From NCBI RefSeq assembly GCF_019104765.1, contig NZ_JAHRXJ010000011.1, positions 434,001 through 498,000 on the forward strand: DNA of 64,000 nucleotides, written 5' to 3'. Below, piece after piece: positions 38,364 to 52,323 of the stretch; the first letter of the stretch is position 1; each line of letters opens with the position of its first letter. The DNA is from Synechococcus sp. HK05. GTDB taxonomy: Bacteria; Cyanobacteriota; Cyanobacteriia; PCC-6307; Cyanobiaceae. A program made the translations under genes and the position numbers. The notes beneath the pieces were generated by a model. The model searched no databases, was not told the origin of the DNA, and saw only the letters and a list, made by a program, of their open reading frames with translations.

Positions 38364-41304
38364 GTTCGTTGCCCGCCACATCGGCCCTACGGTGGCCGAG
38401 CAGGCGCAGATGCTTGCTCAGCTGGGGCTCAGCTCGCTGGAAGGCTTGATCGATGAGGTGGTGCCGCCGGCCATCCGGCTCGATGCCGCCGCCGCTGCGG
38501 AGGGCCTGCCGCTCGGTTGCAGCGAGGCCGAGGCCCTGGAGGAACTGCAGCAAATTGCGGCGGCGAATCAGGTGCGCCGCAGCTTGATCGGCCTGGGCTA
38601 TCACGATTGCGTCACGCCGGCGCTGCTGCAGCGCCACGTGTTTGAAAACCCGGCCTGGTACACGGCCTACACCCCCTATCAGGCTGAAATCAGCCAGGGG
38701 CGACTCGAGGCACTGCTCAACTTTCAGACCCTGATCAGTGAGCTCACGGGTTTGCCGATTGCCAATGCCTCGCTCCTGGATGAGGCCACCGCCGCTGCCG
38801 AGGCGATGAGCCTCAGCTTTGGCGTGTGTCGCGAGGCCAGTGCCCAGCGCTTTTTGGTGGATGCCCAAGTGCTTCCGCAAACCTGGGCGGTGCTGCAGAC
38901 CCGCGCCGAGCCCCTCGGCATTGAGCTGGTGTCGGTGGAGCCTGCAGCCTTGCTGGAGGCTGCCGAAGGCGGAGCCGAGCCGTTTGCGGGCGCTTTTGGC
39001 TTGCTGCTGCAGTTGCCCGGCGCCGGCGGTGGGCTTACCAACCCTGCGGAGCTGATCGTGGCGGCCAGGGCGGCGGGTTTGATCGTGACGGCTGCTGTGG
39101 ACCCCCTGGCGCAGGTGCTCTTGGCCCCGGTGGGGGAGCTGGGGGCGGAGATCGCCATCGGCAACAGCCAGCGCTTCGGGATCCCCCTCGGGTTCGGCGG
39201 GCCCCATGCGGCCTTTTTTGCCACCACCACCACCCATCAGCGCCGCATCCCCGGCCGGCTGGTGGGCCAATCCCTCGATGCAGAAGGCCGGCCCGCCCTG
39301 CGCCTGGCCCTGCAAACCCGCGAGCAGCACATCCGCCGCGACAAGGCCACCAGCAACATCTGCACGGCCCAGGTGCTCCTGGCTGTGATGGCCGGGTTCT
39401 ATGCCGTGCATCACGGCCCGGAGGGCCTGGCGGCGATCGCCCGGCGGGTGTTGCTGCTGCGCGAGCTGTTGCGGCGCGCCCTGGCTGGCTGCGGGCTGGT
39501 CGCTGAACCCGGCTGTGGGTTCGACACCTTGCGGCTGCAGTCGCCTCAGGCTCCGGCTTTGTTGGCGGCGGCGGAATCGGCGGGGTTCAATCTGCGGCCG
39601 GAGGCTGGTGGTCTGGCGATCACCCTGGATGAACGCAGCAGCGTGGCCGAACTCCAGCGCTTGCTGGAGGCCCTGGCTTCCGCGGCTGGTGCCCCTCAGC
39701 CCTGCGCCGCCACCCTTTGGCGGGCGTTGCAGCAGGAGCTGCGTGACGCCCACTGCAGCGAGGCCCCCGAGCGCTTGCTTTGGGGCGATGTGGTGCCCTG
39801 TCGCCATCGGCCCTGGCTGCAGCAGCCCGTGTTCCAGCGCTACCGCAGCGAAACCGAACTGCTGCGCTACATCCAGCGTCTAGCGGCCCGCGACTTTTCG
39901 CTGGTGCACGGGATGATCCCGCTGGGCAGCTGCACGATGAAGCTGAATGCGGCGGCCGAGCTGCAGCCGGTGAGCTGGCCGGCTTTCGCTGGGTTGCATC
40001 CATTTGCTCCGGCGGACCAGAGCGCCGGCTATCGCCGGCTGGTGGCCGACCTGGAGCAATGGCTGGCGGCGATCACCGGCTTTGCCGGTGTGTCGCTGCA
40101 GCCCAACGCCGGTTCCCAGGGGGAGTACGCCGGCTTGTTGGTGATCCGCGCCTGGCAGCGCAGCCGCGGGCAGCAGCAGCGCACGGTGTGCCTGATCCCC
40201 ACCAGCGCCCATGGCACCAACCCCGCCAGCGCGGTGATGGCGGGGTTGCAGGTGGTTCCCGTGGCCTGCGATGAGCAGGGCAATATCGATCGCGCCGACC
40301 TGCAGGCCAAGGCCGAGCAGCACAGCGATCGCCTGGCCGCCCTGATGGTCACCTATCCCTCCACCCATGGGGTGTTTGAGCAGGGGATTCAAGAGATCTG
40401 CGCGCTCATTCACGACCACGGCGGCCAGGTGTACCTGGATGGCGCCAATCTCAACGCCCAGGTGGGCCTGGCCAAACCGGGGCTCTATGGCGCCGATGTG
40501 TGCCACCTCAACCTGCATAAAACCTTCTGCATCCCCCACGGCGGCGGTGGCCCCGGCGTGGGTCCGATTGCGGTGGCGGAGCATCTCCTGCCGTTCCTGC
40601 CGGGCCATCCCCTTGCGGAGCGTTGCGGCGGTGCGCAGGCGATCGGGCCGGTGAGCGCCGCCCCCTGGGGCAGCGCCAGCATCCTGCCGATCAGCTGGAT
40701 GTACATCCGGATGATGGGTGGCGCCGGCCTACGCCAGGCCTCGGCGGTGGCCCTGCTGGCCGCCAATTGGCTGGCCGAGCAATTGGAGCCCCATTTCCCG
40801 GTGCTCTATCGCGGTGCGGGTGGCCGCGTGGCCCATGAGTGCATCCTCGATCTGCGGCCCCTTAAACGCAGCGCTGGCCTAGAGGTCGACGACCTGGCCA
40901 AGCGGCTGATGGATTACGGCTTCCACGCGCCCACCGTGAGTTGGCCGGTGGCGGGCACGGTGATGGTGGAGCCCACGGAAAGTGAAGGATTGGCGGAGCT
41001 GGAGCGCTTCTGCCAGGCCATGGCCGCCATCCGCGCTGAGGCCGCGGCGATCGAGGCGGGCCAGAACGATCCGCTGGATAATCCGCTCAAGCGGGCCCCC
41101 CACACCCTGCTGGCCGTGATGGCCGAGCAGTGGGATCGTCCTTACAGCCGCGCCCAGGCGGGCTATCCAGCCGGCGAGGAGCAGTTGGCCAGCAAGCTCT
41201 GGCCGGCGGTGGCGCGGATTGATAACGCGTATGGCGACCGCCATCTGGTGTGCACGTGTCCTTCGGTGGAGGAGTTGGCGACGCCAACCCTCAGCGGCAC
41301 TTGA
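38353..41304 (+). CDS. gcvP: glycine dehydrogenase (decarboxylating), P protein
   Basis: PLP enzyme that decarboxylates glycine and loads the residue onto GcvH. About 983 residues from [20 protein letters not shown], the usual fused alpha-beta form. The PLP lysine is in [19 protein letters not shown] (about residues 718-736). The start at 38353 is preferred because the conserved N-terminus begins there. The frame is intact. A hairpin follows the stop at 41305. Confidence 0.96.
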
Positions 41305-41337
41305 TTCCGGCGGGTTTGCGTTTAGATTTCGCCGGAA
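41305..41337 (+). terminator. terminator-like hairpin after gcvP
   Basis: Perfect 8-bp inverted repeat TTCCGGCG ... CGCCGGAA around a 17-base loop, starting just after the gcvP stop. It is followed by CGAAAAA rather than a T run, so it is a weaker candidate for an intrinsic terminator or a 3'-end stabilising stem. Confidence 0.45.
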
Positions 41338-41445
41338 CGAAAAATGCGGAATTTCTTTTCGCAGTCACCCTTGCTTTTCCAGCAGGATCTGCTGCAACTG
41401 CAGGGATCACTGCGGATCGGGTGACACCGGTATCTGGGAGGAACG

Positions 41446-41676
41446 ATGAACACGGATGATCAGGGAACCACGGGGATCAAGGGGCACGCCGATTTGTTGC
41501 TGCCCGCCGTTGTGAGCGGAGAAACCCTGCGCGTGGAAGGCACCAACGTGGTGCGCGTTCCCTTTGGTGTGCGTCGTCCTCGCCGCAGCCGCCCGGCTCG
41601 CCCCGAGCGTTGGGCCACCGTGGTGCTGCCGTTTGTGGCGGGTGGCAACACCCCGCCACCGCCTCAGGCCGCCTGA
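41446..41676 (+). CDS. 76-residue hypothetical protein
   Basis: MNTDDQGTTGIKGHADLLLP, then a basic Arg/Pro-rich centre (GVRRPRRSRPARPERW) and a short hydrophobic end (ATVVLPFVAGG). The ATG at 41446 has GAGGA upstream (GGGAGGAACG), a good ribosome site. No family is recognised. It overlaps the convergent gene at 41664 by 13 bases. Confidence 0.6.
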   Translation: MNTDDQGTTGIKGHADLLLPAVVSGETLRVEGTNVVRVPFGVRRPRRSRPARPERWATVVLPFVAGGNTPPPPQAA

Positions 41677-41867
41677 TTCAGGCGCCAGTCGATCAAGGCC
41701 TTCACGTCATCCACGGAGCTGGCGGGCGTACGAAACGGCAGCAGGCTCATCGGGCTGCGTTCCGGCCGCACCAGCCAGGTGAGGTCGTTCTGGGGAATCA
41801 ACACAAAACCGCGGTATCGCACCACCCAGCGCTGGCGAGCGGGGTTGGGTTCGAGGGCCGCCTGCAT
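41664..41867 (-). CDS. 67-residue hypothetical protein
   Basis: Small soluble protein from MQAALEPNPARQRWVVRYRG, with QNDLTWLVRPERSPMSLLPF and a C-terminal helix (SVDDVKALIDWRL). The Trp/Arg pattern and host-like codon use suggest a conserved picocyanobacterial hypothetical gene. Function unknown. Confidence 0.62.
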   Translation of the reverse strand: MQAALEPNPARQRWVVRYRGFVLIPQNDLTWLVRPERSPMSLLPFRTPASSVDDVKALIDWRLNQAA

Positions 41868-41879
41868 CGATCTAACCAA

Positions 41880-42101
41880 CTGACCCCATCATTTGAGCCG
41901 GTCTGATAGCGGTTGCCGAGGAGTTCGGTTTTTCTTCAGGCTGTGATGAACAGGTCTTACAGCCTCAAAAAATGAGGCCTCAGGAGGCTTGCTGCCACTG
42001 GGATTTGCCGAATTCTCGCTTTGGGTTAAGAGACGGCTGGGCTGTGGTGTTGGCTACAGCCCAGGAGCCTCATTCGTGCTGAGAGAGTGAGTGCTGCGGT
42101 C
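41880..42101. other. intergenic region with two hairpins downstream of flv1
   Basis: No ORF is supported here. Two perfect inverted repeats are visible. GCCTCA/TGAGGC (41962-41978) surrounds an A-rich loop. CTGGGCTGT/ACAGCCCAG (42037-42064) lies 38 bases after the flv1 stop and is a candidate terminator for flv1, though it lacks a T run. Confidence 0.5.
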
Positions 42102-43916
42102 TCAGTAATTGGCGCCGCTGCGCCGCTGGTGCACGGCGGTGGTGGCGGCGGCATCGAGCACGGCACCGGCCTGCACCTGGGCGTAGAGCAACCAGTGGTC
42201 GCCGCACTCCATCCGTTGCTGCACCGTGCACTCCAGCCAGGCCAGCGCCTCCGGCAACACCGGCAGGCCGCCGGGGCTGTGCTCCAGCTCAAGCCCTGCA
42301 AAACGATCCGCTCCTGGAGCGAAGGGTTGAAGGAACTGCTTCATGGGTCCGGTTTCACGGCCTGAGGCCAGCACGTTGAGTGCGAAGGCATCGCCCACGT
42401 GCAGGAGTGCTTCTACGGCTCGATCCTTGGCCACAGCCACGGTGAGGCCCGGGGGGGTGAAGCTGGCCTGGCTCACCCAGCTCGCCACCATGGCGCCGCT
42501 GAGCTGGCTGTCGCCACTGCCCTTCACTGTGGTGAGCACGCACAGCGAGCCCACCACGCGGCCCAGGGCGAGGACGGCCGGATTGCTGCGGCTTTCGCTG
42601 AGGCCGCCGCCACTGGCGCGGCGCTGGGCCTTGCGTTGCTCGCTCTGCAACTGGCGCCCCAGGCCCGTGCCTGTTTCCTCAATGGTTTTGAGGGTGGCCG
42701 CATCGGGGCTGAACTTCACCTTGATCGGCTCGAAGGCGAAGCGGAAGCCGCCATCGCGCAGCTTGCTCTCCAATAGATCGAGGGCTTCGCCGCTCCAGCC
42801 GAAGCTGCCGAATACACCCACTGGCTTTGCCCGATCGCCTTCCGCCAGCAGGGTGCCCAGGGCCGACACGATCGGCGTGGGGGCATGGCCCCCCAGCGTG
42901 GGTGAGCCGATCAGCACGGCATCACAGCTGCGGATCGCCTCCAGCAGTTTTTCGGCTGGCGTGAATTCGCAGTTGATGCTCTCCACCCGCACGCCGGTGC
43001 GTGCCACCCCCTGGGCCAGGCCATCGGCGATGGCGGCTGTGTTGCCGTAAGCGCTGGCGTAAAGCAAAGCCACGGAGAGCTTGGCGCGTTCCTGGGTTTC
43101 GCCCCAGCGCCGGTAATCCACCAGCAGGCTGCGCCAGCTCTCGGCGATGGCGGGGCCGTGTCCAGGCGCGATGGTGCGGATCGGCAGTTCGTCGACGCGA
43201 TCGAGCACCGTTTCCACCTGCCGCACCATCGGTGCCATCAGGCAGTCGTAGAAGTAGCGGCGGTCTTCCTCGGTGCTGCTGCGGTTGGCTTCTGCCCAGG
43301 CTTCGCTGCAGAGGTGAGCAGCAAAGAACTTGCCGCTCATCAGCAGGCCGCTGTTCTCCTCAAAGGCCATCAAGCCACCTGGCCAGCGGGGTGTGGGCGT
43401 GGGCAGCAGCTCGATGCAGCGGCCGTCGCCGCGCTCCAGCCGCAGCTCGCCGCGCACCACCTGGAGTGGTGGCAGGGGCGGCAGCGCTTCCGCTTCCGCA
43501 GCCGGCTCTGCGCCGGGGGCGGCGGGCTTGCGTTGCTCCCACAGTTCGCGCAGCAGCTTGGCGCCAGGGTTGGAGCTGATCAGTTCCAGCAACGGCCAGC
43601 GCTGCGCGAGCTTGCGCAGAAGTTTGACCCGGTTGGGGTTGGTGTGGCCCACCACCACCTGCAGCCGGGCATCGGTGGCCACTAGCTCGGCCAGGGCTTC
43701 GAGATAGGGCTCGGCGAAGGAGGCGCCCGGCGGATGCACCAGCAGTGCCGCATCGTCGCCATCCGGCAGAAATAGGAAGCTGTTGGCTGTGGTGCCGCGC
43801 TCGAGGCCGTACTCCACTTCGAAGCGCAGGCGCGTTGGGCTGAGGCCCCGCAGGCACACCAAACCCGGCTCAAGCGGTAGCTGAATCACCGACCGTTCAG
43901 CGCCCTTCGCAGCCAT
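42102..43916 (-). CDS. flv1: flavodiiron protein, Flv1-type (non-canonical metal ligands)
   Basis: About 604 residues: beta-lactamase-like domain, flavodoxin domain (SVALLYASAYGNTAAIADGL) and C-terminal flavin-reductase domain (LCVLTTVKGSGDSQLSGAMV). Cyanobacterial Flv1/Flv3 reduce O2 to water on the acceptor side of photosystem I. The metal-ligand motif reads HTNPNR instead of HxExDH, as in Flv1-type members, so it probably works as a heteromer with Flv3. The ATG at 43916 is preferred; 43940 is an alternative. The Flv3 partner is 5.4 kb away, separated by a mobile element. Confidence 0.88.
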   Translation of the reverse strand: MAAKGAERSVIQLPLEPGLVCLRGLSPTRLRFEVEYGLERGTTANSFLFLPDGDDAALLVHPPGASFAEPYLEALAELVATDARLQVVVGHTNPNRVKLLRKLAQRWPLLELISSNPGAKLLRELWEQRKPAAPGAEPAAEAEALPPLPPLQVVRGELRLERGDGRCIELLPTPTPRWPGGLMAFEENSGLLMSGKFFAAHLCSEAWAEANRSSTEEDRRYFYDCLMAPMVRQVETVLDRVDELPIRTIAPGHGPAIAESWRSLLVDYRRWGETQERAKLSVALLYASAYGNTAAIADGLAQGVARTGVRVESINCEFTPAEKLLEAIRSCDAVLIGSPTLGGHAPTPIVSALGTLLAEGDRAKPVGVFGSFGWSGEALDLLESKLRDGGFRFAFEPIKVKFSPDAATLKTIEETGTGLGRQLQSEQRKAQRRASGGGLSESRSNPAVLALGRVVGSLCVLTTVKGSGDSQLSGAMVASWVSQASFTPPGLTVAVAKDRAVEALLHVGDAFALNVLASGRETGPMKQFLQPFAPGADRFAGLELEHSPGGLPVLPEALAWLECTVQQRMECGDHWLLYAQVQAGAVLDAAATTAVHQRRSGANY

Positions 43917-44009
43917 GGGGTTTCCCTTTGCTAAGGCCAACTTTAGGAAGCGCCTTGCGACGTTTTGGAGAGCTCATTAGTTTTGAGAGGTTAGTGACAC
44001 TGTTAACAA

Positions 44010-44507
44010 ATGATTCAGTCCGGCCCGGAGGCTTATGGCTTCGATATTTCGAGTGTCGATCGATTGGATTGGCATGTGCGAGCTGGCTATTCCCCCATGG
44101 CAGTGGCTGCGTCGATAGGGGATGCGTCTGTTGATGTTCGAGGCGCGGCCGATTTCCTGAAGGGAAAGTGGGTTGGCAAGGGGTCTGGATACCGAAGCGA
44201 AGGTTATAAATTGAATGGTGATTACAAATTTGTGATCACTAAAGTCCGCGGCTTTTCTGCTAAGGCTACGAAGCAGTATCGAGATGTTGATTCCGGTGCA
44301 TGGAGCGATCCCGAGCGGGCTTATTTCACCTTGTCGCCCCAGGGTGAGTCGGGCGCGTGGCAGCTCTACGGAGCTGAAGGTGATGGCCTCTATTTGGGGA
44401 CTGTCGCGCCTGGTGGCGACATGATTCTGAATTATCTCGAGGCTGGATCAGGTGTCGATGATGCAGCGCTGCGAATCGCCCTGAAGAAGCGAGGCCAGCG
44501 CGGCTAA
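44010..44507 (+). CDS. hypothetical protein next to the element
   Basis: 165 residues from the ATG at 44010, or about 136 from an internal Met (MAVAASIGDASVDVRGAADF). The middle is beta-rich (GYKLNGDYKFVITKVRGFSA; YLGTVAPGGDMILNYLEAGS). Its composition is lower in G+C than the core genes but it has many GpC and alanine codons, so it is not part of the GpC-free element that begins 23 bases after its stop. Divergent from flv1. No family is recognised. Confidence 0.5.
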   Translation: MIQSGPEAYGFDISSVDRLDWHVRAGYSPMAVAASIGDASVDVRGAADFLKGKWVGKGSGYRSEGYKLNGDYKFVITKVRGFSAKATKQYRDVDSGAWSDPERAYFTLSPQGESGAWQLYGAEGDGLYLGTVAPGGDMILNYLEAGSGVDDAALRIALKKRGQRG

Positions 44508-44529
44508 GCCGCCTTCAAGTTTCGAGCTC

Positions 44530-44549
44530 AGTAGTGGTTCCCCACTTTG
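44530..44549. repeat. left attachment-site repeat
   Basis: 20-bp direct repeat agtagtggttccccactttg, identical to 49305-49324. It contains a short dyad AGTGG-TTCC-CCACT, the layout of a tyrosine-recombinase core site. The flanking bases differ from the right copy on both sides (C/A here, T/C there), so the repeat is exactly 20 bp. Confidence 0.85.
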
Positions 44550-44831
44550 ACGACCACTCCCTGAGAACCCTTGTGGGAGAATGGGTTTGGAGGGGTCGTC
44601 TTGGTCATCAGATGACTTTCAATCCGTTTTCAACTTGTCTCCTGACTTCCTGAGGGGGTCCAGGGACCAGTTGGTGTGACCCCATTTTCCCAGTTCTTGG
44701 GGACACCTGACTGGTCCGAAGGGTTCTCTTCACGACCTTGAGGGTCCTGGACCACCTGGGGATTTTTTTTGAGGAAAGGGGTCCCGACATCACTCACTCG
44801 TTTTGTCACCTCTGGAGGTCACTGGGACCCA
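44550..44831. other. left-end region with a long hairpin; weak ORF
   Basis: An imperfect stem of about 19-20 bp pairs 44664-44683 (GGACCAGT...GACCCC) with 44699-44717 (GGGGACAC...CTGGTCC) around a 15-base loop. The hairpin could be a single-strand origin, a structured RNA or a transfer signal. A weak ORF of 61 residues (44608-44793, minus, basic, MSGPLSSKKIPRWSRTLKVV) spans it. I doubt it is a gene. The region is GpC-free like the rest. Confidence 0.5.
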
Positions 44832-44993
44832 TCAGTTTTTAGTTGGGGGTGTGGTCTGTCCAAGAAGACCTCTCCAGGTCTCAGGACTGACTTCTTTGAT
44901 GGTGTTCCTTAGGAGTCCGAAACAGAGGTAGAAGATGTCCAGAGGGTCTTCCAGGGTTTTGAACACTGGGTTGTGTCGGTGGGATGGTTTCAC
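44832..44993 (-). CDS. possible 53-residue element protein
   Basis: A GTG-started frame, VKPSHRHNPVFKTLEDPLDI then a hydrophobic helix-like stretch (FYLCFGLLRNTIKEVSPETW) and a stop at 44832. It begins within the repeat motif that follows the gene at 45007. No alanine. No strong ribosome site is seen. A second in-frame GTG at 44966 would give 44 residues. It looks protein-like but remains uncertain. Confidence 0.3.
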   Translation of the reverse strand: MKPSHRHNPVFKTLEDPLDIFYLCFGLLRNTIKEVSPETWRGLLGQTTPPTKN

Positions 44994-44998
44994 GGATG
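44978..44998. repeat. 21-bp motif downstream of the first exported ORF
   Basis: ggtgggatggtttcacggat followed by g; 19 of 21 bases match 45407-45427. Both copies lie within ten bases of the stop of an exported-protein gene on the minus strand. They do not form a hairpin. They may mark duplicated cassette ends or a protein or RNA signal. Confidence 0.55.
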
Positions 44999-45006
44999 GT
45001 TTTAGT

Positions 45007-45324
45007 TTAAAAACTTCTAGGACAAATTTCTAACGATGTCTTAAAGACTAAATCAGTGAGTTTCATTGACACATCTCTGTCGTACTTTTTCATTAGGGTG
45101 TTCATTATCCATATTCGTTCTTCGTTGTCAATCTTGTTGATTGACCTTGGGTACATACCTCCAGACTTAGACGTCTCACATAACTCTTTTGACATATCCG
45201 AAACAAGTTCCATTATGGTTTCACTTGTCACCTCTACCTGTGAATCGGAATGAACGACGGAACTCATAGAAAACACCGAGAGTAAGACAAAAGAATATAG
45301 AACTTGTTTCAAGGTTGACACCAC
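45007..45324 (-). CDS. small exported protein of the element
   Basis: 105 residues. The N-terminus is a signal peptide (MVSTLKQVLYSFVLLSVFSM, hydrophobic core then SSVVHSDSQ) that contains no alanine, so the usual AxA cleavage site is replaced, perhaps by VHS. The mature part is about 75 residues, acidic and helical (SETIMELVSDMSKELCETSK), with two or three cysteines. Function is unknown. A 21-bp motif follows the stop (44978-44998) and recurs after the gene at 45435. Confidence 0.6.
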   Translation of the reverse strand: MVSTLKQVLYSFVLLSVFSMSSVVHSDSQVEVTSETIMELVSDMSKELCETSKSGGMYPRSINKIDNEERIWIMNTLMKKYDRDVSMKLTDLVFKTSLEICPRSF

Positions 45325-45406
45325 TTGACACTAATACAAGTATAGATGGGTCAAGTCCTTAGAGAGTACTTCGGGTTACAGAGGGGAATCTGAAACTGGA
45401 TTGGTT

Positions 45407-45427
45407 GGTGGGATGGTCTTACGGATG
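45407..45427. repeat. 21-bp motif downstream of the second exported ORF
   Basis: Second copy of the motif at 44978-44998 (differences at positions 12 and 14), located seven bases beyond the stop of the gene at 45435 on the minus strand. Confidence 0.55.
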
Positions 45428-45434
45428 ACTATGA

Positions 45435-45869
45435 CTAACTTCTGTATGGATACAAAGTCCAGTCTAACCACTTTTGATTGTCACAGAGGACCTTGTAGAT
45501 GAGTCTCCCTTTCTCCTCTTGAATGGAACTTGAACAAACCCTTTCTGGTTCTCCTTTGGTTCTGTATTCGTAGTTCCTGTTTATGTATCCCACCATTGTG
45601 ATGTGTTTGTGGTCTGGGATACAATCGGTGTTAAAGAATACCCAGAATACTTTGTTGTCACGAACAAAGAAAAAACCACTTTTTGATTGAATATCTGGTT
45701 TATTAGTTCTGTAAGAGAACCAGTGGGAGTAACGGGTTCTATCGGTCCGTGGGTCGTTCCAGGGGACCTCTAGGTCCTCTCTGACGGGTGGAGAGGACCT
45801 AAAGGAGGTCTCGGGGGTCAAGAACCCAACCAGACCCAGAAGAAGGACGACAGACCACCTCATCTCCAC
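45435..45869 (-). CDS. exported or membrane-anchored element protein
   Basis: 144 residues. A hydrophobic N-terminal segment (MEMRWSVVLLLGLVGFLTPE) is followed by an aromatic- and Arg-rich body (SHWFSYRTNKPDIQSKSGFF; VFWVFFNTDCIPDHKHITMV) with three cysteines. There is no alanine, so the signal peptide lacks AxA. It looks like a small periplasmic or surface protein. The start is a GTG at 45869; an ATG at 45863 is possible. No family is recognised. Confidence 0.58.
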   Translation of the reverse strand: MEMRWSVVLLLGLVGFLTPETSFRSSPPVREDLEVPWNDPRTDRTRYSHWFSYRTNKPDIQSKSGFFFVRDNKVFWVFFNTDCIPDHKHITMVGYINRNYEYRTKGEPERVCSSSIQEEKGRLIYKVLCDNQKWLDWTLYPYRS

Positions 45870-45967
45870 ATAGTAAAAGGACCTGTTCTGAAGGGAACGA
45901 ACAGGTCCTGGTTAAGGTCTGGAGACTTCACATCCCCTCAGTTTATCTAGGTCTTGTTTCACACCAG

Positions 45968-46129
45968 TCAGGAGAGACCTTTCCAGTGGTCGTCCGAGTT
46001 GAGGAGTTTGTCAATCTTCTGTTCTCTTTTTCTTTTTCTATATGACTTGACCATTCGGTCAATAAGGTCTTCTCTAGTCTTAGGATACTGAGTTCCATTA
46101 ACTTTAGTCTTTTTAGAATTTTTATCCAT
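45968..46129 (-). CDS. 53-residue basic element protein
   Basis: MDKNSKKTKVNGTQYPKTRE, then helix-like DLIDRMVKSYRKRKREQKID and a short acidic end. The strong positive charge suggests nucleic-acid binding, perhaps an excisionase-like directionality factor, but the fold is not recognised. A different frame (45943-46155, 70 residues) overlaps it. I favour this one because its sequence looks more like a folded protein and AAGAAGAA precedes the ATG. Confidence 0.45.
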   Translation of the reverse strand: MDKNSKKTKVNGTQYPKTREDLIDRMVKSYRKRKREQKIDKLLNSDDHWKGLS

Positions 46130-46164
46130 TGTTCTTCTTTCTTCTGGAGGGACATTGTTGTTAT

Positions 46165-46455
46165 TCAGACCCTCATCAGTCGTTGGACCACCCAGGGGGA
46201 AATCTCTTCTAGTTCATCTGGTGGGACACCTTCAACTGGATTTGAGATTTGAGGAATGAGTTTCTGGGTCCAAGGGTTGAGTTGAAGTCTTATTGACCGA
46301 TATTTCTTGGGGTCATCAGGACATAGTGAGTAATACATCTTCCCGACTTCCATTGAGTTCCTACTGGTTTTCTGGGGTTCATCCTGTTCCTGTGTCTTCA
46401 GACCAAGTTTCCTTTTTAAGGTTTCTTCTCTGAACTGATGGAATGTCTTTTTCAT
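46165..46455 (-). CDS. 96-residue element protein
   Basis: MKKTFHQFREETLKRKLGLK, then a charged N-terminal half and a C-terminal half with several prolines and tryptophans (LQLNPWTQKLIPQISNPVEG; EISPWVVQRLMRV). No alanine, no membrane segment, no recognised domain. Its ATG overlaps the stop of the upstream gene (ATGA at 46452-46455), so it belongs to the coupled rep cluster. Confidence 0.6.
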   Translation of the reverse strand: MKKTFHQFREETLKRKLGLKTQEQDEPQKTSRNSMEVGKMYYSLCPDDPKKYRSIRLQLNPWTQKLIPQISNPVEGVPPDELEEISPWVVQRLMRV

Positions 46456-46589
46456 TTTGATTTTACCGATTTCTCGTATTGGTTTTTGATGGTCTCTTCA
46501 ATCCATTGTTCTGGTTTCTTTCTTGTCTTATTGGACAACTCAAGAACCATCTGATAGGTGACAGAAGAGAGGGAAATTGTCTTCCTCAT
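46452..46589 (-). CDS. 45-residue ribbon-helix-helix-like protein
   Basis: MRKTISLSSVTYQMVLELSN, then KTRKKPEQWIEETIKNQYEK: a short beta strand (TISL) followed by two helices, the layout of CopG/Arc-type ribbon-helix-helix DNA-binding proteins. Such proteins often repress plasmid rep genes. ATGA overlaps couple it to both neighbours (46586-46589 and 46452-46455). The fold call is by pattern only. Confidence 0.6.
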   Translation of the reverse strand: MRKTISLSSVTYQMVLELSNKTRKKPEQWIEETIKNQYEKSVKSK

Positions 46590-46747
46590 TTCACCATATC
46601 CTTTACTCTACAAGAGTTGTAGTCCTTTAGTATCTTGAAGATTGTCTGGGTCTTGTTGAGATTAAACTCCATTGAGTAATTCTCTAGTAGTTCAAGGTAT
46701 TTGTTGTTTCTTCTGGATACACTTAGACAAATCTGGTTTTTCTTCAT
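46586..46747 (-). CDS. 53-residue ribbon-helix-helix-like protein
   Basis: MKKNQICLSVSRRNNKYLEL, then LENYSMEFNLNKTQTIFKIL: strand (QICLSVS) and two helices as in ribbon-helix-helix proteins, distinct in sequence from its downstream neighbour. An AAGGAG ribosome site (46753-46758) overlaps the stop of the Rep-like gene, nine bases separate the genes, and ATGA couples it to the next. The pair may form two regulators or an antitoxin-like set. Confidence 0.58.
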   Translation of the reverse strand: MKKNQICLSVSRRNNKYLELLENYSMEFNLNKTQTIFKILKDYNSCRVKDMVK

Positions 46748-46756
46748 TGGTTCTCC

Positions 46757-47467
46757 TTAGTGTTCTATATCTGAGTTTTCTCGGTCCAGGACATCCATAA
46801 AGTCAAGACCTTTTCTGGTGATGTCTTTCAGGGAGTAATGACCTACATTCCAAAGGTCTTCTGGTGTCTTGAGGACTTGAGTTTTTACTGATGGTCTGAA
46901 CTTATTTACATCTGGATGTAGTCTTAGACAAGAGTTGATGAGGTCTATCTTTAGGTTTGTAAGGTCATCATAATGATGGTTGATAATTGGGACACCCATT
47001 CCTCCAGGTGTGTCCCATAGTTTCCTGAGTTTGGATTTCGGTTCTTCTATTTGATGGTCTGTGATGGGTCCTATCAGGAGGTTTGTGTGGTATTTCCCTT
47101 TCTTCTCGTCTCCATATTGAAGATTTTTCCCAACCTCTATTCTCTCTGACTTACTTTTGTGTCTTTCCATTGTGAAGACGAGACAGATGTTCCTACCGAA
47201 GTGTTCCCTGAGGATGTTCCTGTGTCTTCTGTGGACCCCTTTCATATAGTGTTCGTGGTAAAGACCCTTTCTGTAATCCCAATCCCTGATGTATCCATTA
47301 TCGTCCCTGTCACCATAGTGAATGACTGAGTAAAACCACTCTCCCTCACTGAGGTTTTCCACCTTCTCCAGTATCAGGTGTTTCACCAGTTCTCCTTCTG
47401 TTCTTTTATCTAAGGTTCTCATTTGGATACACCCGTAGGATACTAAGGACACTTCAGGTCCAGACAT
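46757..47467 (-). CDS. putative replication initiator (Rep-like)
   Basis: 236 residues. KYHTNLLIGPITD (H127, about residues 126-137) resembles the core strand of HUH-type or plasmid Rep proteins, and VGHYSLKDITRKG (Y211, K214) resembles the Tyr-x-x-Lys nicking helix that follows it. The match is weak and the full HxH is not present, so this is a hypothesis; a relaxase-like or other DNA-processing protein is possible. No alanine. A 12-bp palindrome overlaps its start codon, and two RHH-like genes follow, as in small plasmid replicons. Confidence 0.5.
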   Translation of the reverse strand: MSGPEVSLVSYGCIQMRTLDKRTEGELVKHLILEKVENLSEGEWFYSVIHYGDRDDNGYIRDWDYRKGLYHEHYMKGVHRRHRNILREHFGRNICLVFTMERHKSKSERIEVGKNLQYGDEKKGKYHTNLLIGPITDHQIEEPKSKLRKLWDTPGGMGVPIINHHYDDLTNLKIDLINSCLRLHPDVNKFRPSVKTQVLKTPEDLWNVGHYSLKDITRKGLDFMDVLDRENSDIEH

Positions 47468-47648
47468 TGAATATTCAATATACCCAGAGACTGACTGATA
47501 TTTCCACTCAGATAAGTATGTGATATAAGGTTGATATACCTTATATAGTATATTCCATATTTACACATCAGTCAATAGAACACCGTCTAAGAAGTCAATA
47601 AAGATGTATGTTTATTTGGGGTTTCTTTTGTTGGAATAACGGATATAC
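47467..47648. promoter_or_regulatory. AT-rich region with concentric dyads; rep operator/origin candidate
   Basis: This 180-base gap holds a perfect palindrome TTGAATATTCAA (47467-47478) at the rep start. It also holds an 8-bp inverted repeat ATATAAGG/CCTTATAT (47523-47530, 47539-47546) nested inside GACTGAT/ATCAGTC (47493-47499, 47567-47573) with nearly the same centre. Such symmetry between integrase and rep suggests a regulatory hub or replication origin. Confidence 0.55.
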
Positions 47649-49151
47649 CTATTCCTCTTCAAGTGTTCTGATGAGTGACATTCCCTTTGTTATTCTTTCG
47701 GTATTGGTCTCAACTTGAATGTGGGAGTAAGTCTGGTCTATGTAAGTCGTTGATGTTCCAAGTTGTTTTGAGAGTAGGTGGATGTCTAGTCCGTTTTGAA
47801 GACGAAGTGTTGTGTAGAAGTGTCTTGATGAATAAAGTGTTATTCTTCTGTTGGTCTTGTCCAGTTCATCCTGAAGACCAGTCTCATTTAGAACCTTCTC
47901 CAGTCTGTCAGTGAAGACCTTCTGATGGTATGGAATGTTTTTGTCTTGTCTTTTCCAGGTTGGGTTTCTGAAGATATATTTGTCCGGACTACACCCCATT
48001 CCAACCTTTTCGTAGGTTTCCCGAAGTCTTTCCAGACGACGTCCAACGGGACCATTCACACTTCTCATTTTTCCTGTCTTTGAGTTTTCAGACCTTACCT
48101 TGAGAAGACGAAATATTTTCTGGTTCTCTTTGGTGTCAGACACATTGATGGAGACATCTCCCCAGGTCAGTCCTAGGATCTCCTTGGGTCTCATACCAGT
48201 GTTATAGGATATACCGATAAACTCTCTGAAGATGGACCTTTTGGTTTGTTCCAGGGTTGAGGACCCCTCGGGTCTTAGGTATTCGTTGGTTCTGAGATAT
48301 TTCACTAATCTCTCGTATTCTTCAACTCTGAGGATGTCCCGTTTAACCTGAGTTGAAGGTGGTTTCTTCATCAAGTCTATTTGGGGGACAAGAGAGGATG
48401 AGATAAACTTGTCTCTTACACCAACCTGTCTGTACATTCTATTGACTTCTGAAACGATTGAGTTGATGTAATCTGGTGAGTATCTGGTTCCCTTGTAGTA
48501 AGACTTTTCTTGTCGTTGAACCCAATATTGGAAATCTCTTGTGAGATCTGGTGGGATGTTCTCAATCTTGGTGTCTCCCATTTTGAGTTCTTCTTGAATG
48601 TATTTTTTCCAGACTGACAAGTATCCTTTTTTGGTCTTCCAGGTTTCCAGGGTTATTCCAGTCTTGGGGAGAGGACTTATCCTCCGTTCCTCCCGTTCTA
48701 GATAAATCCTAATAAGGTCTTTTGTCGTCAGTGACTTGGTTTTCTCTCCTCTTATTAGTTTTCCGTAAGTTTCGGAATACATTTGTCTTCCGAGGACAAT
48801 ACCCTCTTCTCGTGAGTTTGTTCTTAAACTCTTGGAGAATACCTTCTTAGTCTCTCTACAATAAATCCTCAGGTAATAGTTCCCGTTCTTGGTTCTCCCA
48901 TCTCGGTAGATGAAACTATCTTTCGTGTTTTCCCATAGGTAAACCTTGTCCTGGAAAATCTTGTTTCCTTTTTCGGTCTCCTCTTCTTTCTTCTTCTGTT
49001 TCAGGGACACCACAGAGGAGAGGACCATTAGAAGGTCCTCTGGGGTGAGGTCCAGGTTCCCTACGACCTGTCTCAGGGTCTCTAGGGACTGTTCCTGGTT
49101 CTGGGGTCTTGGTTCGTCTTCCTGTGGGTCCTGAGGGGTGATGGGGGTCAT
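47649..49151 (-). CDS. tyrosine recombinase / integrase
   Basis: 500 residues: a charged N-terminal region, a core-binding-like domain (about 140-260) and a catalytic domain (about 270-490). Catalytic residues: R321 (NTGMRPKEILGLTWGD), Lys at about 358-361 (SENSKTGKMRS), R443 in LYSSRHFYTT (HxxR box with Tyr replacing the first His), Thr at the usual His/Trp position (LGTSTT), and nucleophile Y475 (DQTYSHI). It probably integrates the element at the 20-bp repeat in flv3. It has no alanine: positions usually Ala in this family, such as RHTFAT, read RHFYTT. Confidence 0.85.
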   Translation of the reverse strand: MTPITPQDPQEDEPRPQNQEQSLETLRQVVGNLDLTPEDLLMVLSSVVSLKQKKKEEETEKGNKIFQDKVYLWENTKDSFIYRDGRTKNGNYYLRIYCRETKKVFSKSLRTNSREEGIVLGRQMYSETYGKLIRGEKTKSLTTKDLIRIYLEREERRISPLPKTGITLETWKTKKGYLSVWKKYIQEELKMGDTKIENIPPDLTRDFQYWVQRQEKSYYKGTRYSPDYINSIVSEVNRMYRQVGVRDKFISSSLVPQIDLMKKPPSTQVKRDILRVEEYERLVKYLRTNEYLRPEGSSTLEQTKRSIFREFIGISYNTGMRPKEILGLTWGDVSINVSDTKENQKIFRLLKVRSENSKTGKMRSVNGPVGRRLERLRETYEKVGMGCSPDKYIFRNPTWKRQDKNIPYHQKVFTDRLEKVLNETGLQDELDKTNRRITLYSSRHFYTTLRLQNGLDIHLLSKQLGTSTTYIDQTYSHIQVETNTERITKGMSLIRTLEEE

Positions 49152-49304
49152 CTCTTCAACAAACCTTCAACTCGGTGGAAGGTGGGGTTTCAGTCCCCAT
49201 CGGGGACTTTCAACTCTCTTCAACTCGTTTTAAGGTTCGTCTGTCCTCCAAGAAACCTAATAATACCAAGGGTTCTTGGAGGGTGTCAATCCGAAGTGGA
49301 ACCT
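49152..49304. promoter_or_regulatory. right-end region with short repeats and hairpin (arm-site/promoter candidate)
   Basis: TTCAACTC occurs at 49166-49173, 49209-49216 and 49219-49226, with TTCAAC at 49155-49160. A perfect AGTCCCC-ATC-GGGGACT hairpin lies at 49192-49208. Directly repeated short boxes beside the core repeat and upstream of the integrase resemble recombinase arm sites or an integrase operator. Confidence 0.5.
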
Positions 49305-51045
49305 AGTAGTGGTTCCCCACTTTGCGGTGATGCACGGCGGTGGCGGCTTCGGTGTCGGCCACGTTGCCCTGCTCCACTTCGGCGTAGATCACCCAGTGGT
49401 CGGGTCCTTCCATGCGTTGCTGCACACGGCAGCCCAGGAAGGCCAGCGCATCACCGAGCACGGGGCCGCCTGCTGCCACGCCCTCGAGGGTGGCCACGCC
49501 AGCGAAGCGATCGGCGCCGGGTGGGAAGCGCTTGAGGAAATGGCGCAGCAGAGGCTGGTGGTTGTCGTCCCGCAGGATGTTGAGCACGAAGCGATCGCCC
49601 ACCTGCATCAGCGCTTCGATGGCACGGTCCTTGGCCACGGCCACCGTGATGCCGGGCGGCTCGAAGCTGGCCTGGCTCACCCAGCTGGCCACCATCGCGG
49701 AGGCGCGCTCCTCCTGCCGGGCGGTCACCACATACAGGCCGCCGGAGAGCCGTCCCAGCGCTTTGTCGAGGTCGCCATCGAGTGCCTTCATCGCGGCGAT
49801 CGTCTTGGCGCGCGTGAGCAGTTGGCCCAGGTCGGTGCCGGCCTCTTCGCAGCGCTGGTAATCATTCCCATCGGGCACCTGGCGGATGCGCAGCGGTTCA
49901 AAGGCCTCCTTCTGGCCCAGGCCGCGTAGCTGCGAGGCCACGGTGTCGATCGGCTCGTCGTTGCCGCCGTAGGCGTCGTAGGTGGCGACCCACTGCTTGG
50001 GCTGCAGGGCGGCTAGCAGGGTGCCGATGGAAGCCTGAAGGTCGGCATCGGGATTGGCGGGCCAGGTGGGCACCACCACAGCGCTGGCTTCACCGATCAG
50101 GGCGCTCAGTTCCTGGGCATCGGTGGCGCGCAGATCCACCAGCTGCACCTGGGCTTCCGCTTTGCCGATGCCGCGGGCGATCGCCTGGCTGAGCCGATCG
50201 CAGAAGCCGTACTGGCTTACGTAGCAAACGGCCGCGTAGGCCTCGCCTTTGCTGCGTCCTTCGCTCCACTCGCGGTAGTCGGAGAGCCAGAGGCTGAGGT
50301 GCTCGCGTAGTAGGGGGCCATGGCCCACGGCCACGGTGTTGATCGCCGGTAGCGCGTCTATGCGCTTCATCGCCTGCAGCACGCTGCGGGCGTTGGGACC
50401 CATCAGGCAGTCGTAATAGAAGCGGAAGTCCGGTGCGATGGCGCCGGGATCTACGTCGAATACGTCATCGGAGCAGTAGTGCAGGCCGAAGGCGTCGCAG
50501 GTGTAGAGGATGCCGGTGCCGTGGTCGAACGAGAAGATCGTGTCTGGCCAGTGCAGGTTGGGGGCGCTGAGGAACTCGAAGCGGTGGTGAATGCCGCTCT
50601 CTGGGTTGGTGCCCAGATCCAGCTCTTCGCCACTCTTCACGGCCCGGCTCTTGAAGGGGCGGTGCACCTGGTTTTCCAGGAACTGGATCGCCACCTTGGA
50701 GGCCACGATCTCGATCTCGGGATTCAGATCGATCAGGTGCCCGATCAGGCCGGAGTGATCGGGTTCGGTGTGGCTCACGATCAGGTGGTCGATCGCCTTG
50801 GGATCGATCTGCTCCTGCAGCAGCGGCAGCCAGGTGCTCTCGAACTTGAGATGGCTGGTGTCGATCAGGGCGGTGCGCTCACCCCGCACCAGAAAGCTGT
50901 TGTAGGTGGTGCCGTTGCGCAGGCCGAACTCGATATCGAAACGGCTGCGGTCCCAGTCGAGCGAGCGGATCGTGGTGGTGTCGGCGGCGATCGCCTCGCA
51001 CTGCAGGCTCAGGCGCGGTGTACTGGCAACGGCTGCCTCAGCCAT
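49303..51045 (-). CDS. flv3: flavodiiron protein, Flv3-type (canonical metal ligands)
   Basis: 580 residues: beta-lactamase-like di-iron domain with canonical HTEPDHSG (about residues 91-98), flavodoxin domain (AAVCYVSQYGFCDRLSQAIA) and C-terminal flavin-reductase domain (LYVVTARQEERASAMVASWV). With Flv1 it reduces O2 to water using electrons from photosystem I and protects against fluctuating light. The 3' end is the attachment site of the GpC-free element, which restores the reading frame and stop. Confidence 0.92.
   Translation of the reverse strand: MAEAAVASTPRLSLQCEAIAADTTTIRSLDWDRSRFDIEFGLRNGTTYNSFLVRGERTALIDTSHLKFESTWLPLLQEQIDPKAIDHLIVSHTEPDHSGLIGHLIDLNPEIEIVASKVAIQFLENQVHRPFKSRAVKSGEELDLGTNPESGIHHRFEFLSAPNLHWPDTIFSFDHGTGILYTCDAFGLHYCSDDVFDVDPGAIAPDFRFYYDCLMGPNARSVLQAMKRIDALPAINTVAVGHGPLLREHLSLWLSDYREWSEGRSKGEAYAAVCYVSQYGFCDRLSQAIARGIGKAEAQVQLVDLRATDAQELSALIGEASAVVVPTWPANPDADLQASIGTLLAALQPKQWVATYDAYGGNDEPIDTVASQLRGLGQKEAFEPLRIRQVPDGNDYQRCEEAGTDLGQLLTRAKTIAAMKALDGDLDKALGRLSGGLYVVTARQEERASAMVASWVSQASFEPPGITVAVAKDRAIEALMQVGDRFVLNILRDDNHQPLLRHFLKRFPPGADRFAGVATLEGVAAGGPVLGDALAFLGCRVQQRMEGPDHWVIYAEVEQGNVADTEAATAVHHRKVGNHY
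49305..49324. repeat. right attachment-site repeat (end of flv3)
   Basis: Identical to 44530-44549. On the minus strand it encodes the last residues of Flv3 (KVGNHY) and the first two bases of its TAG stop. Integration therefore leaves flv3 intact. The last base, G49324, forms the first GpC with host C49325. Confidence 0.85.
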
Positions 51046-51116
51046 GGGATCCGCTCGCGGTTGGGGTGAACTGTAGGTAAGGCGGCAGGAGGAAGGGTCA
51101 GGATTGCCTGCAACGA

Positions 51117-51142
51117 CAAAGCCCCGGCCCTGAGGCCGGGGC
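51117..51142 (-). terminator. intrinsic terminator after hsp20
   Basis: Perfect 9-bp G+C-rich stem GCCCCGGCC/GGCCGGGGC with a four-base loop (51121-51142), followed on the minus strand by TTTG. It lies between the hsp20 stop and the flv3 start. Confidence 0.7.
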
Positions 51143-51192
51143 GGATCCCGTCTCGTTTGGTGTGACTCGATCGCGGCGCCTGGCCGCCGGCA

Positions 51193-51639
51193 TCAGCCCT
51201 CCACCTTCACGCTCACGCTGGTGAGGGTCTGGGCCTTGGGCACCTCCACCGTGAGCAGTCCGTCGCGATACACGGCCTGCACCGCTTCACGGTCGATGCC
51301 GGAGGGGAAGCGGAAGCTGCGGCTCCAGGTGCCGTAGCGGATTTCGCTCAGCAAGGTGGCAGCGCCAGTGGGTTGGGGGTCGCCGTCGGTGCTTTCGGCT
51401 TGCGGGGCGCGGCGTTCAGCGCTGATCACCAGGTTGCGGTCGGTGGCTTTCACGTCGATCGAGTCGCGCTCGACGCCGGGCAGCTCCAGGCAGATGCTGT
51501 AGCCGGCTTCGGTTTCGCGCACTTCGGCGGCGGGAACGCGCTCGGCGGTGTGCAGCTGTTGCTCGAGTCGCTTGAACAGGTCGGACTCGAGGCGATCAAA
51601 AGCGGTGCGATCGAAAGCGGATTGGCGCAGAGTCAGCAT
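51193..51639 (-). CDS. small heat-shock protein (Hsp20/alpha-crystallin)
   Basis: 148 residues with an alpha-crystallin domain (SICLELPGVERDSIDVKATD; LVISAERR) and the end motif DGLLTVEVPKAQ. ATP-independent chaperone that binds unfolding proteins and associates with membranes under heat or light stress. The ATG at 51639 has GGAG upstream; the longer frame to 51750 is unlikely. The 160-base upstream gap should hold its promoter. Confidence 0.92.
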   Translation of the reverse strand: MLTLRQSAFDRTAFDRLESDLFKRLEQQLHTAERVPAAEVRETEAGYSICLELPGVERDSIDVKATDRNLVISAERRAPQAESTDGDPQPTGAATLLSEIRYGTWSRSFRFPSGIDREAVQAVYRDGLLTVEVPKAQTLTSVSVKVEG

Positions 51640-51801
51640 GGCTGTGTCTCCTGAATGTGCGGGTGCGGGGTGTTCACCCGCAACGCCAATGTGCTCGGCT
51701 TGTTTGATCGCCAGTAGTGCAAGAACCGACCCTTTTGGTGCGGTGCTCACACCCCTGGTTCGGCTGCAACACCAGTGTTTTCCGGAGAACCGAACGTTGA
51801 G

Positions 51802-52323
51802 CTAGAGCCACCACCAACTGCTGAACGCAGCCGCCTGGCCGCAGGGTTGATCGCCGGGGCCCCAGAGGGTCCAGAGGCGGGCGTTGTGGATCTGGAAGCG
51901 GCGGCCGCTCTGGCTGATGCGCACGCCGCTGTAACCCTCGCTGGCGTGTTGTTGCAGGGCGTTGGCGAGCATCTGAGCGCGGCTGTCGCGCTCCTGGGGT
52001 TCCGCAGTGAGCCGCGAGGGCATGCCGATCATTTCGGCCCAGCTGCGCTCCCACAGCTGCAGAGCGGCGGCGTTGGCGTAGATCAGGGCGGGATCGGAGC
52101 CGCCGTCATGGGCGAGCACCACGGTGTCAGCGCGGAACAGCAGCTGAGCAGCTTGGAGGCCATCGTGCGTTGCGGTGCCAGCCAGCAGCGGCCGGCCGAA
52201 CGCGCGCTCGAACGAGCGCAGGATGCTGCAGGCAAGGTGTTGCTTGCCAGGTGTGAGCCAGGGGGCCGCGGCTTGGGCCACGGCCAGGCGCCGCAGGCGT
52301 CGGCGGCGGGGCGAGCTGATCAC
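51802..52323 (-). CDS. MEKHLA (PAS-like) domain protein
   Basis: About 173 residues. PWLTPGKQHLACSILRSFER, then DPALIYANAAALQLWERSWA, MPSRLTAEPQERDSRAQMLA and GYSGVRISQSGRRFQIHNAR follow the MEKHLA-domain pattern, a PAS-like fold of unknown ligand. The GTG at 52323 lies two bases after the stop of the SWIM gene upstream, so it is the third gene of the SNF2-SWIM-MEKHLA operon. Confidence 0.75.
   Translation of the reverse strand: MISSPRRRRLRRLAVAQAAAPWLTPGKQHLACSILRSFERAFGRPLLAGTATHDGLQAAQLLFRADTVVLAHDGGSDPALIYANAAALQLWERSWAEMIGMPSRLTAEPQERDSRAQMLANALQQHASEGYSGVRISQSGRRFQIHNARLWTLWGPGDQPCGQAAAFSSWWWL

What the first reader, a model, noticed from the sequence alone, without database searches (positions are those of the whole stretch)
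44527..49324. A 4.8-kb integrative element with no GpC dinucleotide at all
Reading every line and line junction, I find no GC dinucleotide between C44527 and G49324. GpC is its own reverse complement, so this holds for both strands. With G and C each near 0.21, chance would give about 200 (rough estimate). The host just outside has eight in 60 bases. CpG, with the same composition, is frequent inside, so this is not low G+C. Coding, non-coding, codon-internal (no AGC, GGC, TGC, CGC) and codon-junction positions all comply, so the constraint acts on DNA. The tract ends at the attachment repeats. Hypotheses: escape from a nuclease or defence that reads GpC or GC-centred words (GC-type specificities exist, e.g. 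M.CviPI methylates GpC and CviJI cuts RGCY), or a GpC-directed deaminase or mutator acting on the element.
Basis: seen in the sequence. Interest (0 to 1): 0.98.

Follow-up and report, generated by a model that had tools for sequence, protein, structure and literature searches.

The report
Mobile element lacking every GC dinucleotide
A small mobile DNA element in a picocyanobacterium contains not one G-followed-by-C step in 4.8 kb, so its proteins have no alanine, and most of its compared relatives lack some other short word, as if each lineage had erased the target of a DNA-cutting enzyme.

Summary
Window 44527-49323 holds no GpC (about 220 expected; minimum 183 in 2000 shuffles), in coding and non-coding DNA, and the tract ends at 20-bp attachment repeats. 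The element sits at the 3' end of a flavodiiron-type gene and encodes a tyrosine integrase, a probable HUH Rep and small proteins. Eight ORFs (1249 residues) lack alanine. CpG is also depleted (0.39), contrary to the finding.

It is not an isolated oddity. The words differ: GC (window), CG (two elements of separate clades), RGCY, TTAA, TGCA. The ends of a decayed relative nearly lack both GC and CG.

Best explanation: selection on the mobile form to erase the target of a Type II-like double-strand endonuclease. Six of eight forbidden 4-mers are palindromes, fates of lost GpC speak against a deaminase, and 9 of 17 phages examined, all large and marine, also avoid RGCY. The enzyme was not found; host restriction versus phage nuclease is unresolved. 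Recognition-site avoidance is known; loss of a whole dinucleotide was not reported in what my searches listed.

The parts
44530..49304 (.). Integrative element with zero GpC (attachment repeat to attachment repeat)
44530..44549 (.). Left 20-bp attachment repeat AGTAGTGGTTCCCCACTTTG
   Evidence: direct repeat 4775 bp apart
49305..49324 (.). Right attachment repeat; overlaps the 3' end of the flavodiiron-type gene (..KVGNHY stop)
47649..49151 (-). Tyrosine recombinase (integrase), 500 aa, no alanine
   Evidence: Pfam PF00589 E 9.2e-12; PHROG integrase E 1.5e-28; relatives L032 and L033 have 33 and 30 Ala
46757..47467 (-). Probable HUH-type replication initiator, 236 aa (YHTNLLIG ... HYSLK)
   Evidence: 26-28% identity to a protein next to the integrase in G379, which has HSHLYL; motif names recalled; AlphaFold model of low confidence, Foldseek matches not significant
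46586..46747 (-). Small basic protein, 53 aa; CopG-like by eye only
   Evidence: ORF; no Pfam match
46452..46589 (-). Small basic protein, 45 aa; CopG-like by eye only
   Evidence: ORF; no Pfam match
46165..46455 (-). Protein of unknown function, 96 aa
   Evidence: ORF; no Pfam, PHROG or PADLOC match
45943..46155 (-). Protein of unknown function, 70 aa
   Evidence: ORF; no match
45435..45869 (-). Protein of unknown function, 144 aa, hydrophobic N-terminus (signal-peptide-like by eye)
   Evidence: ORF; no match
45007..45324 (-). Protein of unknown function, 105 aa, signal-peptide-like N-terminus by eye
   Evidence: ORF; no Pfam match over its cut-off; none in PHROGs or PADLOC
44550..45006 (.). 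Non-coding left end of the element, also GpC-free
   Evidence: similar short stretches in the far end of the L031 element
49168..49226 (.). Three CAACTC motifs at the integrase end, possible integrase arm-type sites (inference; the motif also occurs twice elsewhere in the element)
   Evidence: AGTTGAAAATGAGTTGAAA-like repeats at two places in the L035 and L036 elements
49303..51045 (-). Host diflavin flavodiiron-type protein (called flv3 here); its 3' end is the integration site
   Evidence: Pfam ODP, Flavin_Reduct; 12 of the elements lie between this gene and the next
42102..43940 (-). Host diflavin flavodiiron-type protein (called flv1 here), other boundary of the hot spot

Best explanation
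This is a small integrative element (tyrosine integrase, probable rolling-circle Rep) that has purged the dinucleotide GC from its DNA under selection by a double-strand endonuclease that reads GC, met during the element's excised or transferred phase. Shown: the zero count, its limits at the attachment repeats, its presence in non-coding DNA, the loss of all alanine, relatives that lack other mostly palindromic words, and a few GpC or CpG in two copies with a broken integrase. Inferred: that a nuclease is the agent, that selection acts on the mobile form, and that an older avoidance of RGCY was widened to all GC in the clade of the window element and L031.
For: (1) 0 GpC of about 220, exact to the attachment repeats, also 0 of 53 in non-coding DNA. 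(3) 6 of 8 forbidden 4-mers in that test are palindromes (16 of 136 classes are; P 6e-5; rough, since AGCC, GCCA and AGCT overlap RGCY and are not independent), as for dimeric Type II enzymes. (4) Fates of lost GpC are spread over transitions and transversions. (5) CG-poor elements lie in separate integrase clades. (6) Window and L090, with unbroken integrase frames, have zero of their word; L031 and L040, with broken ones, have a few (L031: 5 GpC and 3 CpG in 1.6 kb; L040: 4 CpG). (7) 9 of 17 phage records examined, whole or in part, all large marine phages, avoid RGCY at o/e 0.12-0.30. (8) Cyanobiaceae carry Type II enzymes next to C5 methylases, e.g. HaeII-, TdeIII-, SinI-like. (9) Site avoidance is an established anti-restriction strategy (PMC6286503, abstract) and stronger in small, broad-host-range plasmids (PMC10359461, abstract).
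Against: No GC-reading nuclease was identified. The host G000 has no PF00145 C5 methylase and only 59 of 400 family genomes have one. A 2-bp target is shorter than that of any restriction enzyme I can name apart from relaxed CviJI (recalled). L033 and L035, in the same site, have no word that passes the test (though their integrase genes are poor in RGCY, 2/19.5 and 1/10.1). L032 has a broken integrase frame yet no RGCY, so a broken integrase does not always come with returned words. RGCY avoidance is not general: L040 50/79, L090 7/39, L008, L012 and L013 none. L032, L036 and L089 carry a methylase and still avoid words. No phyletic pattern pointed to a phage nuclease.
Confidence: 0.73

Rival explanations
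1. The agent is a phage-borne nuclease: large marine cyanophages degrade host DNA with a short-word endonuclease, and the element, as satellite or bystander in infected cells, survives by lacking the word. This is a version of the best explanation that names the agent.
For: RGCY is avoided by the 8 marine T4-like phages examined (type partly recalled), including HTVC008M whose recorded host is Pelagibacter, and by S-SKS1, but not by P-SSP7, Syn5 and P60, podoviruses of Prochlorococcus and Synechococcus. P-SSM2 (252 kb) has 0 CCGG of 116, 0 GCGC of 72 and 0 CGCG of 35 expected. Methylases with GC, CG and GCY specificity are described (PMC9636781, passages).
Against: No nuclease gene was found that is shared by the four avoiding phages and absent from two non-avoiding ones (BLASTP from two of the genomes, ORFs of 60 aa or more). 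No relative of the integrase or Rep was found in IMG/VR viral contigs in four scans, which use short peptide patterns and can miss relatives. S-SKS1 is not T4-like (recalled) and freshwater S-CRM01 does not avoid, so avoidance does not follow one phage lineage. P-SSP7 avoids GGCC alone (6 of 65).
Confidence: 0.3
2. The agent is a host-community restriction-modification barrier: some recipient strains carry GC- or CG-reading restriction systems and the element moves widely enough to need to pass them.
For: C5 methylases in 59 of 400 Cyanobiaceae genomes (52 of 251 good ones), with Type II enzymes beside several. G285, host of the CpG-poor element L040, has a C5 methylase beside a weak BsaWI-like match. 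Most forbidden 4-mers are palindromic. Broad-host-range plasmids avoid more strongly (PMC10359461, abstract).
Against: The window's host has no C5 methylase. The restriction families seen have longer targets than GC or CG (targets recalled). The BsaWI-like match is below its Pfam cut-off. N4-cytosine methylases were not surveyed.
Confidence: 0.4
3. A mutational process (GpC-directed deaminase or mutator) removed GpC.
Against: Only 22 of 59 sites became AC or GT; alanines became Ser, Gly, Val, Thr and others, many by transversion. Relatives lack unrelated words such as TTAA and CG. GT (1.09) and AC (1.12) exceed expectation less than GA, GG, TC and CC (1.29-1.42) do.
Confidence: 0.03
4. The element makes its own GC-cutting nuclease and lacks the target to protect itself.
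For: Several proteins are of unknown function.
Against: No nuclease or defence match in Pfam, PHROGs or PADLOC. The host DNA is full of GpC (8127 in the window), so such a nuclease would kill the host unless silent. Among the 17 loci compared, no gene besides the integrase is common to the word-avoiding ones at BLASTP E 1e-3.
Confidence: 0.07
5. The constraint acts on protein or RNA (for example alanine scarcity or an RNA-cutting enzyme).
For: All eight ORFs lack alanine.
Against: GpC is also absent from non-coding DNA (0 of 53) and codon junctions; complementary non-palindromic words AGCC and GGCT, counted together, are both absent in relatives such as L032 and L036.
Confidence: 0.02

Closest known systems
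Recognition-site avoidance by phages (Rusinov et al. 2018, PMC6286503; abstract, section list and one passage seen)
   Same: Loss of short words at the DNA level; complete or almost complete elimination is reported for about a tenth of viral genomes
   Different: The avoiding unit here is an integrated element, the word is a whole dinucleotide, and no cognate enzyme is known; [quoted passage not shown]
Target avoidance in small broad-host-range plasmids (Shaw et al. 2023, PMC10359461; abstract and section list seen)
   Same: A small mobile element tunes its composition; some relatives of the window element carry methylases
   Different: There the abstract describes avoidance of 6-bp targets as a statistical tendency; here it is an exact zero at 2 bp, so a whole amino acid is lost
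Short-word methylases and nucleases of algal viruses (M.CviPI, GC, in PMC9636781 passages; CviJI, RGCY, recalled and named in the finding)
   Same: Shows that methylases reading GC, CG and GCY exist
   Different: No homologue was sought here, and I know of no such nuclease in cyanobacteria
Tycheposons of Prochlorococcus (seen only as described in PMC10872708 passages)
   Same: Tyrosine-recombinase cargo elements of picocyanobacteria
   Different: Those have a tRNA gene at the border; this element lies at a flavodiiron-type gene with no tRNA nearby

Membership tests
Integrative element with tyrosine recombinase | Tyrosine recombinase gene | tested here: met
   PF00589 E 9.2e-12; PHROG integrase
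Integrative element with tyrosine recombinase | Direct attachment repeats flanking the element | tested here: met
   20-bp repeat at 44530 and 49305
Integrative element with tyrosine recombinase | Demonstrated excision or transfer | not testable with these tools
   Sequence only
Type II recognition-site avoidance | Word depleted far below expectation, in coding and non-coding DNA | tested here: met
Type II recognition-site avoidance | Forbidden words palindromic | tested here: met
   6 of 8 four-letter words, P 6e-5 with words not fully independent; GC, CG and RGCY are self-complementary too
Type II recognition-site avoidance | Cognate restriction enzyme or methylase in host or relatives | tested here: inconclusive
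   No C5 methylase in G000; C5 methylases in 59 of 400 genomes with Type II enzymes beside some, none of known GC specificity; other methylase types not surveyed in hosts
Phage satellite | Packaging, capsid-remodelling or other phage-directed genes | tested here: not met
   Only the integrase matched Pfam or PHROGs with confidence
Phage satellite | Presence in virus-fraction DNA | tested here: inconclusive
   No viral contig found with the window integrase, Rep, A1 or A2; the pattern search reaches close relatives best
Tycheposon | tRNA gene at the border | tested here: not met
   0 tRNA genes in window 41000-52000
HUH rolling-circle Rep | HUH motif and Y..K motif | tested here: inconclusive
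   Homologue has HSH and HYGLK; the window protein has HTN and HYSLK; no significant fold match

The most novel reading that the evidence does not exclude
Picocyanobacterial communities contain DNA-cutting systems that read single dinucleotides (GC, CG). A family of small integrative elements survives by erasing the whole dinucleotide, alanine codons included, and successive lineages at one chromosomal site record a changing set of enemies: RGCY, then all GC, then GC plus CG, and CG independently at least twice more.
Probability: 0.5. Interest if true: 0.92.

Novelty: new variant of a known kind. Interest (0 to 1): 0.84.

Why it matters
Site avoidance is usually described as a deficit at longer words. 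Here an entire dinucleotide and an entire amino acid have been lost by a mobile element, which implies very strong, persistent selection by an unknown enzyme. Because relatives at the same site lack different words, the elements may act as records of which DNA-cutting specificities circulate, and they name words (GC, CG, RGCY) for which enzymes can be sought.

Tried and rejected
Deaminase or mutator: disfavoured by the spread of fates. Protein- or RNA-level constraint: rejected because non-coding DNA complies. Contamination or synthetic DNA: the element lies inside a 628-kb contig between host genes, and another genome, Prochlorococcus sp. AG-412-I05 (a single-cell genome, recalled from the name), has a decayed relative at the same site. 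Element-borne nuclease: no candidate. Shared phage nuclease by phyletic pattern, four avoiding versus two non-avoiding phages: what appeared were oxygenase-like and halogenase-like proteins and proteins without a clear nuclease look, labels partly by eye; GIY-YIG: no match over the cut-off in 10 phage records, one weak match in S-PM2. Searches of viral contigs with the window integrase, Rep, A1 and A2: no relatives. Phage records: five distant integrase matches, none over 80% of the query; none for Rep. Fold search with the Rep model: mean pLDDT 55.8, best match E 0.12. PDB sequence search with A3: none. My idea that avoidance follows the T4-like phage lineage was weakened when S-SKS1 also avoided RGCY and freshwater S-CRM01 did not. 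A clean split between methylase carriers and word avoiders did not hold: L032, L036 and L089 have both, and L033 and L035 are poor in RGCY in their integrase genes. Confidence in the best explanation was lowered by 0.01 on re-checking, because L032 has a broken integrase and still no RGCY.
Full report
OBSERVATION. A recount gives GpC at 44526 and next at 49324 and none between, against 221 expected; the next-longest GpC-free run in the window is 72 bp. In the element between the attachment repeats (44530-49304) the count is 0 of 219.6 expected, and the lowest value in 2000 shuffles is 183. Five non-coding segments comply (0 of 53 expected), and the eight ORFs that I take as genes contain 0 alanine in 1249 residues. 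One correction: CpG is depleted too, 87 of 220 expected.

ANATOMY. The element is bounded by a 20-bp repeat that coincides with the end of a diflavin flavodiiron-type gene. It encodes a 500-aa tyrosine integrase (PF00589) and a 236-aa protein whose homologue beside the integrase of G379 has an HSH motif and HY..K, as in HUH Rep proteins (motif knowledge recalled). The window protein has HTN in place of HSH. The model was poor (mean pLDDT 55.8) and fold matches were not significant, so Rep is a motif-based inference. The other small proteins have no match over a curated cut-off.

RELATIVES. A search of 400 family genomes with the integrase found matches in 96 at E up to 1e-3, most of them distant. 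I compared 17 loci in detail, chosen from the better matches; all fall in one integrase cluster, and 12 of them lie between the same two host genes. The nearest, in Prochlorococcus sp. AG-412-I05 (L031, 71% identity over the integrase), has an integrase split into three ORFs. Its two ends nearly lack GpC and CpG: 5 and 3 in the 1.6-kb integrase end, about 70 each expected, and few in the far end. Its middle is normal.

FORBIDDEN WORDS. I tested 179 word classes (all 2-4-mers with complements, plus RGCY) in the 12 elements and in 14 host control segments beside them. Limits were set by hand from the host genes, for the window from the attachment repeats. Nine elements and no control had a word below a tenth of expectation at corrected P < 1e-3: window GC 0/219.6 (also CATG 0/14, TCGA 0/13); L090 CG 0/133; L040 CG 4/255; L089 RGCY 0/45; L039 TTAA 0/34 and RGCY 0/33; L088 RGCY 0/26; L041 RGCY 2/34; L034 TGCA 0/22; L036 AGCC and GCCA 0/19-20 and GTAC 1/18. 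L031 taken whole, L033 and L035 had none; L033 carries a transposase-like ORF that dilutes it (by eye), and AGCC is absent from 4.1 kb of it. Outside this set, other integrase-bearing loci have RGCY-free tracts of up to 10.4 kb with 90 expected (L095); those tracts were delimited by the word itself and so are weaker evidence. Independent of boundaries, 18 of 33 integrase coding stretches with at least 4 expected RGCY have none (35 examined; L001, the window, and L002 fell under 4); the pooled count without those two is 102 of 386 expected. Not all avoid it: L008, L012 and L013 do not, and the CpG-poor elements L040 (50 of 79) and L090 (7 of 39) do so weakly or partly.

TREE. On the integrase tree the window element and L031 form a supported pair next to L032 (RGCY-free, GpC normal), while CG-poor elements L031, L040 and L090 fall in separate places. 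The simplest history is widening from RGCY to all GC in the window-L031 clade and repeated origin of CG avoidance. This is inference from 17 sequences, several broken, and the window row was flagged for unusual composition.

MECHANISM. Fates of 59 GpC sites of L032 aligned with the window integrase are AC 16, GG 8, TC 8, GT 6, CC 5, GA 5 and 11 others; alanines (33 in the two L032 ORFs, 30 in L033) became Ser, Gly, Val, Thr and others. That fits selection against the word better than a directed mutator. Six of eight forbidden 4-mers in the test are palindromes against 16 of 136 classes (P 6e-5); the words overlap, so the P is rough. Window and L090, with unbroken integrase frames, have zero of their word; L031 and L040, with broken ones, have a few, as expected if selection stops when mobility is lost. 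L041 (broken, 2 RGCY) fits, L032 (broken, 0 RGCY) does not. I therefore favour escape from a Type II-like double-strand endonuclease during the mobile phase.

WHO CUTS. Nine of 17 phage records examined avoid RGCY at o/e 0.12-0.30: P-SSM2, Syn9, S-PM2, HTVC008M, P-SSM4, S-SM2, P-HM1, S-RSM4 and S-SKS1. Eight do not (0.72-1.26): P-SSP7, Syn5, P60, PSS2, S-TIM5, S-CRM01, Ma-LMM01 and KVP40 (stretches of 12-50 kb). In whole genomes P-SSM2 also has 0 of 116 CCGG and S-PM2 0 of 153. So an RGCY-reading agent seems to be met by large marine phages and by these elements, but not by the three podoviruses, though P-SSP7 is poor in GGCC (6 of 65). A conserved phage nuclease was not found. C5 methylases occur in 59 of 400 family genomes, not in G000. 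From 31 methylase loci I picked by eye 20 neighbouring ORFs: 8 hit a restriction or ICEA family, 6 of them over the Pfam cut-off (HaeII, TdeIII, SinI, EcoO109I, BglI, ICEA), and the BsaWI-like match in G285 was under it. Host restriction and phage nuclease both remain open.

METHYLASES. Five of the 17 loci carry a methylase: ParB-N6/N4 type in L033, L035, L036 and L089 (some matches at or under the Pfam cut-off), methylase-Mrr type in L032. L033 and L035 show no word that passes the test, which fits a choice between modifying and erasing sites, but L032, L036 and L089 do both, so this is not a rule.

LITERATURE. Those for GpC with cyanophage (0 papers), RGCY with cyanophage, CviJI with avoidance (20 of 73 listed, unrelated), T4-like cyanophage with restriction sites and avoid, GpC with absence, dinucleotide, restriction and phage satellite (8 of 610 listed), restriction avoidance with dinucleotide, mobile elements and cyanobacteria (20 of 89 listed) and Prochlorococcus with integrative elements showed no report of a dinucleotide-free element among the listed titles. 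Site avoidance in phages (PMC6286503, abstract and one passage) and plasmids (PMC10359461, abstract) is established; methylases with GC, CG and GCY specificity are described (PMC9636781, passages). The library is open-access only.

VERDICT.

Noticed in passing
L090:6400-12360 (G596): Element of a g17 genome at the same flv site with no CpG at all (0 of 133 expected) over 6 kb, integrase frame unbroken.
   Followed up: partly
L095, L096, L097, L098, L102, L103: Other integrase-bearing regions with RGCY-free tracts of 5.7-10.4 kb (expected 58-90), probably wider than this integrase family.
   Followed up: partly
Phage records AY939844, AJ630128, DQ149023 (L118-L130, L147-L156, L138-L146): CCGG is absent or nearly so in whole T4-like cyanophage genomes: 0 of 116, 0 of 153 and 1 of 165 expected; P-SSM2 also lacks GCGC and CGCG.
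   Followed up: partly
L101:4394-10737 and phage Syn9: GAAC/GTTC is missing from a 6.3-kb tract (49 expected) and is also low in phage Syn9 (258 of 1346), a shared non-palindromic word.
   Followed up: no
window 46757-47467: The Rep-like protein has HTN where its homologue has HSH, so the second histidine of the motif may be lost.
   Followed up: no
window 44010-44507: A 165-aa ORF with GpC present lies between the element and the flv1-type gene; origin unknown, no PADLOC match.
   Followed up: no
L041:10390-11844 (G399): Element carries a long MORN-repeat-like protein (by eye) beside a broken integrase.
   Followed up: no
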